A DNA stretch of 35,818 nucleotides from the NCBI GenBank assembly GCA_900299055.1, contig OMII01000196.1, forward strand, positions 1 to 35,818. Direction: 5' to 3'. This DNA comes from Pseudomonadota bacterium. GTDB taxonomy: Bacteria; Bdellovibrionota_C; UBA2361; OMII01. Every line of letters begins with the position of its first letter. Within the stretch, counting starts at the first letter, position 1. The notes below the pieces were generated by a model. It saw only the letters and a list, made by a program, of their open reading frames with translations, searched no databases and was not told the origin of the DNA. The translations under genes and the position numbers were made by a program. Shown piece by piece: positions 11,827 to 14,148 of this stretch.

Positions 11827-14148
11827 ATGGCTCCTGTAACTATCGAACACCCTCTAGATTGGGGTTATCACTACCAGCTAGTGTTCGTATACACCCCCGG
11901 GACACGACATTTCGCAGGCCGAATTGTGGGTCCAATCGGAACCACTGGCCGCGTCGAACATCATCTCGTTCAACTCATCTCTCTTTCGGTAGCAGGTGAA
12001 TCGCTGAAGTTTCATCGTCGTAAAGACGGATCGCCATCCCTATCTCTCAATCTTCCACCCTCCGCCAGCGCCACTTTTCCGGTCGAGATTCGCCTTGGTG
12101 GCAGCTCGGAGAAGCAAGGAGAGCTCTTTGGTCGCTATCGAGTAACGTCAAAGGGAGTTGAGTACGGCGAGGTCTTTCAAAAGCTCACCGTCTTGGAGAC
12201 GAGAATGCTGGCCAACGAGAAGCTCCACCGCTGGTTGCCGTATCCAAGAACTCCACTCAAGCCGCCCATTCTCAGGACCGACCTGCATACCCACAGTTCT
12301 GGGCAGGTATCGTCTGCAGGGCTTATGGAGATAGCGCTGCGAAATAAAATCCCCTACCCGACAAGACTCCTCGGCGCGCTCGGAATCCCGTTCTCTCGGG
12401 AAGATGTCTGCATGACTAAGCGCTACTTCTACGCCCCAACTGACGGTCCCGAGATAGGCAACATCCCAGCCGAAGAAGAGGCGGTTCCTCTTGATTCTCT
12501 CTCAACTCACAGCAGAAACGTCCTGGCTGCGGCGATGTCAGTGCCACCCGACAGGCAGGTCACCTTTGGCGACTTAGAGGTGTCTGTATATCGATTTCGA
12601 ACTCCTATAGCTAAGGCGCCAGCGCTTGCCAAAGATCTGCTCTACAAGTACGCAGAAGAGTACGCGCAGCAAGGCGTTCAGTATGCGGAGATCACCGCCT
12701 CTTCTACGAGCTTTCTTATTCCCGAGCACCTCGCACTTATCCATGAAAATCTTCCCACGATCGAGGCCGAGACTGGGGTCAAAATCAGATTTCTCGCCGG
12801 CCTCGCCAGGAACCTCCCAGACGAACTACTCGCTCGGGAAGTTGAGAAACTCACAATCATGGGCAAGAGCCCATATATCGTTGGCGTAGATTTTGTTGGT
12901 TTTGAGGATAACAAGGTCGAGGACCTCGAGCCGCACATTCAATCGATCGCGGCTTGGGCCAGTAAGAACGACCCTGAGTTTACACTCCGAATACACGCTG
13001 GCGAGAACAGAAAAAATCTTGGGAATGTTCGTGAATCGTTGCGACTAGCGCAAAAATATCGAATGCGAGTGCGTATCGGTCACGCCGCTCACGGTCTTGA
13101 TCAGCAGGCGCTGGAGATCGCGGAGTCTCTCGCAAAAGATAATTTAGTCATGATCGAGTTCAACCCCGACTCGAACCTAGCCCTCAACAACATCGACACT
13201 GCTGAGGAGCTCGAGATGGTTCAGTGCCTCAACCGCTCCATTCCGTTTGTTGTGTGCTCAGACGCAGGTGGATTGTTTCAAACTGACATCTGGCAGATAG
13301 ATGATACAGCATCATTTGCAGGACTCAAGGAGCACCACTTCGACATAATCGCCAAGCATGAGAACGATCATATACAACGAGAATCAAGGCGATTTCAGCG
13401 AAAGATGGAGAGCCTTCCCGATAACTATCTATCCCAAGTGGCGGCACGCATAGCGGAGCTACCAGCACTAAAGGTGAGCAGCAAGCATGCCAATCCAGCG
13501 ATCAAGAGGGCTTTTGAAGAACACCTCGCGGCCCTTGGAATCGAGTTCTCTCAACCAAGTATTGCCCAGGCGACTCATGAAAAACGACCGATTCTAATTC
13601 TCGGGGCTTCCGGAGCGCGCTGGTGGGATAAAATATCGCCAGACCACCACACGCTTATCACCGAACTACTGTCTGGCCTAGTATCGGCTATTGACCCACG
13701 CGCTGCGTTTCTTATGATCGGCCGCCCCAAGGACGCGGGAATCACAACCGCCCTATCTTCGGCTGTTATTCAGCACAACACCTCTCACTGCATCGAGGAT
13801 CAAATCTCGCTTATAAGTGCCACCGTACAGGCCGACCAGACTCGTCAGTCATTTTCGCCCGGCCTTACCCATGTGCTACCACTATACGGCGGCCTTTTTA
13901 CCGTGCCACATCAACTCGTCGACTACGTGGCCGCTCTCGGGGGCATGGTGATCTTTATCGGAGGTGGCACCTTCGTGCGTGACGCTATCCTTGTCGCGCG
14001 CGAGCGGAACGTTGCGTTTGCGCTTATGTATGGCCCAGCTGGCGCGTCTACGGATAAGGCTGTTATGTTTTCAAGAGACCGGCAGTTCACCGACCTTGCA
14101 GGGCTCCTTGCGCTGATCCGACAGCACAGACCTGATCTGCTGCGCTAA
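11827..14148 (+). CDS. Adenosine-deaminase-type hydrolase fused to a C-terminal Rossmann-like (possibly SLOG) domain
   Basis: A 773-residue three-part protein. Residues ~1-140 are a beta-rich domain I do not recognise. Residues ~150-500 are a metal-dependent adenosine/AMP deaminase barrel: HTH in TDLHTHSSG (metal pair), IHAGE (His ligand and catalytic Glu), RIGHAAHG, EFNPDSNL (family E-CP-SN) and VVCSDAGGLF. The metal Asp is kept, but the second Asp of the usual DDP, which contacts the purine, is Ala. Residues ~588-773 begin with ILILGASGA and contain GGLFTVPHQLVDYVAALGG and IFIGGGTFVRDAI, suggesting a Rossmann-like nucleotide-binding domain of SLOG/LOG type. Usual adenosine deaminases have ~330-350 residues. 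The start is the ATG two codons after the TTG in the ORF track; no clear ribosome site is visible. No RdrA-like ATPase is nearby, so a RADAR system is not supported. Confidence 0.75.
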   Translation: MAPVTIEHPLDWGYHYQLVFVYTPGTRHFAGRIVGPIGTTGRVEHHLVQLISLSVAGESLKFHRRKDGSPSLSLNLPPSASATFPVEIRLGGSSEKQGELFGRYRVTSKGVEYGEVFQKLTVLETRMLANEKLHRWLPYPRTPLKPPILRTDLHTHSSGQVSSAGLMEIALRNKIPYPTRLLGALGIPFSREDVCMTKRYFYAPTDGPEIGNIPAEEEAVPLDSLSTHSRNVLAAAMSVPPDRQVTFGDLEVSVYRFRTPIAKAPALAKDLLYKYAEEYAQQGVQYAEITASSTSFLIPEHLALIHENLPTIEAETGVKIRFLAGLARNLPDELLAREVEKLTIMGKSPYIVGVDFVGFEDNKVEDLEPHIQSIAAWASKNDPEFTLRIHAGENRKNLGNVRESLRLAQKYRMRVRIGHAAHGLDQQALEIAESLAKDNLVMIEFNPDSNLALNNIDTAEELEMVQCLNRSIPFVVCSDAGGLFQTDIWQIDDTASFAGLKEHHFDIIAKHENDHIQRESRRFQRKMESLPDNYLSQVAARIAELPALKVSSKHANPAIKRAFEEHLAALGIEFSQPSIAQATHEKRPILILGASGARWWDKISPDHHTLITELLSGLVSAIDPRAAFLMIGRPKDAGITTALSSAVIQHNTSHCIEDQISLISATVQADQTRQSFSPGLTHVLPLYGGLFTVPHQLVDYVAALGGMVIFIGGGTFVRDAILVARERNVAFALMYGPAGASTDKAVMFSRDRQFTDLAGLLALIRQHRPDLLR

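What the first reader, a model, noticed from the sequence alone, without database searches (positions are those of the whole stretch)
11827..14148. Adenosine-deaminase-type enzyme fused to an unknown N-domain and a Rossmann/SLOG-like C-domain
Seen: all metal-site motifs (HTH, IHAGE, RIGHAAH, CSD) are present, but the purine-contacting second Asp of the usual DDP is Ala. A ~185-residue C-terminal part has an ILILGASGA start and an IGGGTFVRDAI loop. Known: SLOG-family Rossmann domains bind or process nucleotides and occur in nucleotide-signalling conflict systems; deaminases act in the RADAR anti-phage system. Inference: this may deaminate or sense a modified or linked nucleotide rather than adenosine, with the C-domain making or binding the ligand.
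Basis: partly seen in the sequence, partly recalled or inferred. Interest (0 to 1): 0.7.

Follow-up and report, generated by a model that had tools for sequence, protein, structure and literature searches.

The report
Deaminase fused to TRPM2-like nucleotide sensor
An uncultured aquatic bacterium makes one protein that joins a divergent adenosine-deaminase-type enzyme to a SLOG domain of the kind that senses ADP-ribose in animal TRPM2 channels, so it is probably a nucleotide-controlled nucleotide deaminase, possibly an immune effector, of an architecture I could not find described.

Summary
Window 11827-14148 (+) encodes a 773-residue protein: a conserved N-terminal beta-rich domain of unknown family (1-~118), an adenosine-deaminase (ADA) superfamily domain (~149-540; Pfam A_deaminase 2e-22) with every metal-site residue intact, and a C-terminal domain (~587-773). 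The C-domain matches no Pfam model directly. Its AlphaFold model (pLDDT 83) matches only SLOG-superfamily structures, first the nucleotide-binding MHR1/2 region of TRPM channels, and a native paralogue's C-domain weakly hits Pfam LSDAT_prok ('SLOG in TRPM, prokaryote'). Both mouse-ADA aspartates that contact adenosine (Asp19, Asp296) are replaced (Ser158; Ala/Gly480). The CRISPR effector Cad1, a Rossmann-sensor plus ADA protein that turns ATP into ITP, alters the same two positions. Orthologues occur in 7 of 12 genomes of one genus and in none of ~370 other sampled genomes, at three or more genomic sites with no shared neighbour. All three domains are under purifying selection. No defence, TIR or Csm1-type Cas10 genes were found. 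Best explanation: a nucleotide-ligand-gated deaminase of a nucleotide (perhaps ATP), working like Cad1 but with an LSDAT SLOG sensor. The architecture is well supported; activity, ligand and any immune role are inferred. I found no description of this fusion.

The parts
11827..14148 (+). Whole gene: N-domain + ADA-type deaminase + LSDAT-type SLOG fusion, 773 aa
11827..12180 (+). N-terminal beta-rich domain (residues 1-118), family unknown; found only in orthologues of this protein among 383 genomes
12181..12270 (+). Highly conserved linker (119-148; 80% invariant) leading into the deaminase domain
12271..13446 (+). ADA-superfamily deaminase domain (149-540)
12277..12306 (+). HxH metal motif H154/H156 (TDLHTHSSGQ); mouse Asp19 position is Ser158
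12988..13008 (+). RIHAGEN: metal ligand H390 and catalytic E393
13072..13095 (+). RIGHAAHG: catalytic H419
13255..13272 (+). CSDAGG: metal ligand D479; mouse Asp296 position is Ala480 (Gly in three orthologues)
13447..13584 (+). Variable ADA-to-SLOG linker (541-586; 30% invariant)
13585..14145 (+). C-terminal SLOG (LSDAT/TRPM MHR1-2-like) domain, residues 587-773
13954..13989 (+). FIGGGTFVRDAI loop of the SLOG domain; conserved in the paralogue (FIGGGDIVKDAI) and alignable by eye with LSDAT GGG(T) motifs

Best explanation
The protein is a single-gene, ligand-gated nucleotide deaminase. The C-terminal LSDAT-type SLOG domain binds an adenine-nucleotide signal such as ADP-ribose or a cyclic ADP-ribose isomer (inferred from TRPM2 and ThsA). 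Binding reorganises the oligomer and switches the ADA domain (inferred from Cad1). The zinc-dependent ADA domain then deaminates an adenine nucleotide, most likely a phosphorylated one such as ATP or dATP, because both adenosine-holding Asp positions are changed as in Cad1 (inferred). The N-domain probably serves assembly or partner contact (guess). Shown here: the domain architecture, the intact metal site, the two pocket substitutions, the predicted SLOG fold, the patchy and relocating distribution, and purifying selection on every domain. The ligand, the substrate and the purpose (infection response or stress control of the nucleotide pool) are not shown.
For: ADA homology 2e-22. All catalytic residues are invariant across orthologues, with Asp19 to Ser and Asp296 to Ala/Gly. 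TaqCad1 has Asp19 to Gly and Asp296 to Asn, and converts ATP but not adenosine, AMP or ADP to the inosine form when a nucleotide binds its fused Rossmann domain (PMC12669630). The ADA profile reaches Cad1 structures at 8e-5. The C-domain model's 37 PDB matches at E<=1e-3 are all SLOG-superfamily folds, with TRPM4/8/5 at the top and TRPM2 among them (best 1.3e-5, probability 1.00). The paralogue C-domain hits LSDAT_prok at 2e-4 and YAcAr SLOG at 5.5e-4, and is linked to the window C-domain by profile comparison at 6.5e-12. TRPM2 MHR1/2 binds ADPR (PMC13143021) and the ThsA SLOG binds 3'cADPR to switch on its enzyme (PMC11204291). No LOG catalytic signature PGGxGTxxE. A second ADA-SLOG protein in the same genome shows that the pairing recurs. 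Synonymous sites are near saturation while dN stays about 0.16-0.21 in all three domains.
Against: No direct evidence of ligand, substrate or gating. No signal-producing partner: no TIR_2 domain in the genus, no Csm1-type Cas10 in the own genome. No defence neighbours and no PADLOC hit. The window's own C-domain matches no Pfam SLOG model directly, and TM-scores to TRPM are only about 0.5-0.6. Cad1 has Asn, not Ala/Gly, at the Asp296 position, so substrate transfer by analogy is weak.
Confidence: 0.45

Rival explanations
1. Bifunctional purine-nucleotide catabolic enzyme: the ADA domain deaminates a nucleotide and the SLOG domain, like LONELY GUY or nucleotide nucleosidases, cleaves base from ribose phosphate.
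For: LOG-like SLOG domains act on AMP-type nucleotides (PMC9503650), and structural hits include LOG-like proteins TM1055 and TT1887. The paralogue adds a C-terminal region with an HD-type motif, which fits a nucleotide-hydrolysing chain. The window gene lies near a PRPP synthetase in two genomes.
Against: The LOG catalytic motif PGGxGTxxE is replaced by IGGG-TFVRDA without the catalytic Glu. The best structural matches are TRPM and Moco carrier, which are binding domains. The PRPP synthetase is not conserved next to other orthologues.
Confidence: 0.2
2. Signal-degrading or signal-converting enzyme: the ADA domain deaminates the adenine of the very ligand held by the SLOG domain (ADP-ribose, NAD or a cyclic derivative), quenching a signal.
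For: Altered ribose-contact position (Asp19 to Ser) would allow a 5'-substituted substrate; LSDAT domains bind ADPR.
Against: No partner gene that makes such a signal was found. No positive evidence separates it from the gated-effector model.
Confidence: 0.15
3. Ordinary purine-salvage adenosine deaminase with an allosteric nucleotide-sensing tail.
For: The window's genome, 97% complete, shows no canonical ADA besides this protein and the paralogue, so it could fill that role. Chromosomal housekeeping neighbours.
Against: Both adenosine-binding Asp residues are gone; Asp296 to Asn in mouse ADA severely impairs binding and catalysis (cited in PMC12669630). Score far below the adenosine deaminase equivalog cut-off (66 vs 217 bits). 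Present in 7 of 12 genus members only, at different sites.
Confidence: 0.12
4. Catalytically dead ADA domain used as a scaffold or binding module.
For: Loss of two pocket aspartates.
Against: All metal ligands, the catalytic Glu and the catalytic His are invariant in six orthologues and, where readable, in a paralogue of 27-30% identity.
Confidence: 0.05

Closest known systems
Cad1 / CAAD (CRISPR-associated CARF-ADA deaminase)
   Same: Rossmann-type nucleotide-sensor domain fused to an ADA domain; metal site kept; Asp19 and Asp296 positions both substituted; ADA sequences homologous (8e-5).
   Different: The sensor is a C-terminal SLOG/LSDAT domain, not an N-terminal CARF; extra N-terminal beta domain; Ala/Gly instead of Asn at 296; no Csm1-type Cas10 found in the genome; ATP activity untested.
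LSDAT / SLOG domain of TRPM channels (MHR1/2), TRPM2 in particular
   Same: Predicted fold and top PDB matches; paralogue hits LSDAT_prok.
   Different: Sequence identity only about 9-16%; no channel; fused to a deaminase; Pfam cut-off not reached.
ThsA (SIR2-SLOG, Thoeris)
   Same: Enzyme domain followed by a SLOG domain that can sense a nucleotide signal.
   Different: The effector is a SIR2 NADase; no TIR_2 partner found here; Thoeris-type cADPR-sensing SLOG belongs to another SLOG clade (PMC9503650).
RdrB of RADAR
   Same: ADA superfamily with N-terminal extension and insertions; nucleotide rather than adenosine substrate there (PMC9994260).
   Different: No RdrA neighbour, no PADLOC match, and no SLOG domain is described in RdrB.
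Canonical adenosine deaminase (Add/ADA1)
   Same: Fold, metal site, catalytic Glu and His.
   Different: Lacks Asp19 and Asp296 equivalents; about 60-residue insertion after HxH; two additional domains.

Membership tests
ADA superfamily (PF00962) | Significant profile match above the curated cut-off | tested here: met
   80 bits vs cut-off 27
ADA superfamily (PF00962) | HxH, HAGE, GH and Asp metal/catalytic residues | tested here: met
Adenosine deaminase sensu stricto (TIGR01430) | Score above equivalog cut-off | tested here: not met
   66 vs 216.6 bits
Adenosine deaminase sensu stricto (TIGR01430) | Asp19 and Asp296 (adenosine contacts) | tested here: not met
   Ser158 and Ala/Gly480
SLOG superfamily, LSDAT branch | SLOG fold | tested here: met
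   AlphaFold model pLDDT 83; PDB matches at E<=1e-3 all SLOG folds; predicted model, not solved
SLOG superfamily, LSDAT branch | Profile match to PF18171 above cut-off | tested here: inconclusive
   Window domain: no hit; paralogue 21.1 bits vs cut-off 25.4, E=2e-4
SLOG superfamily, LSDAT branch | Binds a nucleotide | not testable with these tools
   needs binding assay
LOG phosphoribohydrolase | PGGxGTxxE catalytic motif | tested here: not met
   IGGG-TFVRDA
Cad1 (CARF-ADA) | N-terminal CARF domain | tested here: not met
   N-domain is beta-rich with no CARF/Rossmann match; the Rossmann domain is C-terminal SLOG
Cad1 (CARF-ADA) | Type III CRISPR association | tested here: not met
   No Csm1 in own genome; only one Cas10 family tested, genome is a draft
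RADAR RdrB | PADLOC model match and RdrA neighbour | tested here: not met
   No PADLOC hit; ORFs scanned around it are not RdrA
Thoeris ThsA | SIR2 effector and TIR partner | tested here: not met
   No SIR2 domain in the protein; no TIR_2 in 12 genus genomes

The most novel reading that the evidence does not exclude
A previously undescribed single-gene immune or stress effector in which an ADP-ribose-type second messenger, sensed by an LSDAT/TRPM2-like SLOG domain, switches on an ATP/dATP deaminase that poisons the nucleotide pool: a CRISPR-independent counterpart of Cad1 that links TRPM2-type sensing to inosine-nucleotide toxicity.
Probability: 0.2. Interest if true: 0.85.

Novelty: new variant of a known kind. 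Interest (0 to 1): 0.56.

Why it matters
Sensor-gated ATP deaminases are so far known as Cad1 (CRISPR-tethered) and RADAR. An ADA joined to a TRPM2-type ADP-ribose-sensor fold would show that deaminase effectors can be wired to a different class of second messenger, and would give a small soluble bacterial protein in which LSDAT ligand recognition and coupling can be studied. It makes a direct prediction (ligand-dependent ATP, dATP or AMP deamination) that one purified protein can test.

Tried and rejected
Search for the fusion in plasmids, phages and viral contigs: only plain ADAs on plasmids, nothing relevant in phages or viral contigs. SLOG-profile hit in G175: a subtilase, false positive. 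N-domain: no Pfam, PHROG or credible PDB-sequence match, no significant fold match; the GFP-like and isoamylase beta-sandwich hits are chance level or weak. Profile-profile comparison of the window C-domain orthologues alone with LSDAT members gave no significant match because the alignment is too shallow; the link goes through the paralogue and the structure. Paralogue C-terminal region as an HD domain: motif only (H...HD, and HDLGK in G036), no Pfam HD hit; its PDB hit TLP-IPT was not interpreted. The neighbouring PRPP synthetase as functional partner: rejected, not conserved. RADAR and Thoeris membership: rejected. Contig C7 (the paralogue) as contamination: rejected, its Mpl gene is 92% identical to that of the closest relative. 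Burroughs et al. 2015 (gkv1267) was not in the library, so I could not check whether it lists this fusion. No metagenome scan was allowed, so the taxonomic range may be understated.

Full report
WHAT IS THERE. The window is a whole contig (C196) of a 2.9-Mb draft genome, 97% complete. Close relatives are MAGs labelled as deltaproteobacteria or Proteobacteria. The gene runs from ATG 11827 to 14148 on +, 773 aa. Domains: N-terminal beta-rich domain 1-~118; conserved linker; ADA domain ~149-540 (PF00962 2e-22); variable linker 541-586; C-domain 587-773.

ACTIVE SITE. H154, H156, H390, E393, H419 and D479 match the ADA metal and catalytic set and are invariant in the orthologues. Those that the truncated paralogue covers (H390, E393, H419 and D479) are kept there too. 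The position of mouse Asp296 is Ala in three orthologues and Gly in three, and Gly in the paralogue. The position of mouse Asp19 is Ser. A canonical ADA of the same genus (G004, L060), aligned as control, keeps NTDDP. The equivalog model for adenosine deaminase is missed by a wide margin (66 vs 217 bits). In TaqCad1 the same two positions are altered (Asn, Gly); that enzyme deaminates ATP, not adenosine, AMP or ADP (PMC12669630). That this protein prefers a phosphorylated nucleotide is therefore an inference by analogy.

C-DOMAIN. Sequence alone gives nothing for the window copy. The AlphaFold model from eight sequences has pLDDT 83 and pTM 0.85. Foldseek against the PDB gave 37 matches at E<=1e-3, all SLOG superfamily: TRPM4, TRPM8, TRPM5 and TRPM2 channels (MHR1/2), molybdenum-cofactor carrier proteins, DprA, TM1055. 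The paralogue's C-domain hits LSDAT_prok (2e-4) and YAcAr (5.5e-4), both SLOG and both below the curated cut-offs, and hhalign links it to the window domain at 6.5e-12. By eye, bacterial LSDAT members share the TH(F/V)...GGG(T) stretch with this domain. The LOG catalytic motif is missing. TRPM2 MHR1/2 binds ADP-ribose (PMC13143021) and ThsA's SLOG binds 3'cADPR (PMC11204291), so a sensor is the likelier role.

N-DOMAIN. The model (pLDDT 72 overall, about 80 over 1-110) is beta-rich; there is no significant fold match in the PDB or among viral models. A profile finds it only in this protein's orthologues among 383 genomes. Its function is unknown; strong conservation (67% invariant) suggests a structural or partner interface.

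DISTRIBUTION AND CONTEXT. Orthologues (72-86% identity) occur in 7 of 12 genomes of the genus, counting the window, and in none of the other phylum members searched. The SLOG profile found no other real member in 383 genomes spread over bacteria. The public species-genome scan returned only six loci of the same group, but that scan finds close relatives only. Flanking genes: the window, L004 and L007 share a helicase/Ysc84 neighbourhood; L008 and the G007 fragment share a lectin/DUF481/MscL-like neighbourhood; L006 and L009 share a DUF72 gene. In G002 the helicase-Ysc84 pair lies without the gene, which is elsewhere in that genome. So the gene is an accessory, relocating single gene without a fixed partner. 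No defence family was found nearby, no TIR_2 in the genus, no Csm1 in the genome.

PARALOGUE. Contig C7 (L003) of the same genome carries a second ADA-SLOG protein, 27-30% identical, truncated by the contig end, with a further ~320-aa C-terminal region bearing an HD-like motif. Its neighbour Mpl is 92% identical to that of the closest relative, so the contig belongs to this genome, yet the paralogue is not found in the sequence held beside Mpl in relatives. A standalone relative of the C-terminal region occurs in G036 next to unrelated genes.

SELECTION. Synonymous differences are near saturation between orthologues (pS about 0.6-0.9) while mean dN is 0.16 (N), 0.16 (ADA) and 0.21 (SLOG); only the linker between ADA and SLOG is loose (0.55). 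All three domains are therefore under functional constraint.

INTERPRETATION. Architecture, fold and pocket changes point to a nucleotide-gated nucleotide deaminase that works like Cad1 but with another sensor. It is not a member of Cad1 (no CARF), RADAR or Thoeris. A metabolic role cannot be excluded: the genome has no canonical ADA, and the neighbours are housekeeping genes. I found no description of an ADA-SLOG fusion in the searched papers, but the key 2015 SLOG survey was not held.

Noticed in passing
L061, L062, L064, L066, L068, L069 (genomes G002, G006, G011, G005, G009, G010): Six genus members carry a different ~400-aa ADA-superfamily protein with HVHLGGS (Asp19 to Gly) and S(T/S)DAP (Asp296 to Ala). 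Four of them lack the ADA-SLOG fusion. The Asp19-to-Gly change is the same as in Cad1; no second domain was found by Pfam in the one scanned; substrate unknown.
   Followed up: partly
L003:2-2170 (G000:C7): Second ADA-SLOG protein with an extra C-terminal region bearing an HD-phosphohydrolase-like motif (GEH...CHDLEK); possibly deaminase plus nucleotide hydrolase plus sensor in one chain.
   Followed up: partly
L047:7818-8885 (-) (G036:C66): Standalone 355-aa relative of the paralogue's HD-like region (AVHDLGKF), no Pfam match, between an argJ-like gene and an msrA/B-like gene (judged by eye).
   Followed up: partly
L082 (G089:C95): LSDAT SLOG domain fused C-terminally to a RelA/SpoT-like synthetase region and TPR-like repeats in an unrelated genome (domains judged by eye).
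   Followed up: no
window:15998-17311 (+): D12-class N6-adenine DNA methyltransferase gene without an obvious restriction partner, conserved in L004.
   Followed up: no
window:9731-11104 (+): PRPP synthetase with an N-terminal extension of about 110 residues; conserved in L004, missing at that place in L007.
   Followed up: no
L008:10842-11639 and L048:5338-6141: Legume-lectin-type domain genes in the bacterial genomes G002 and G007, near the fusion gene.
   Followed up: no
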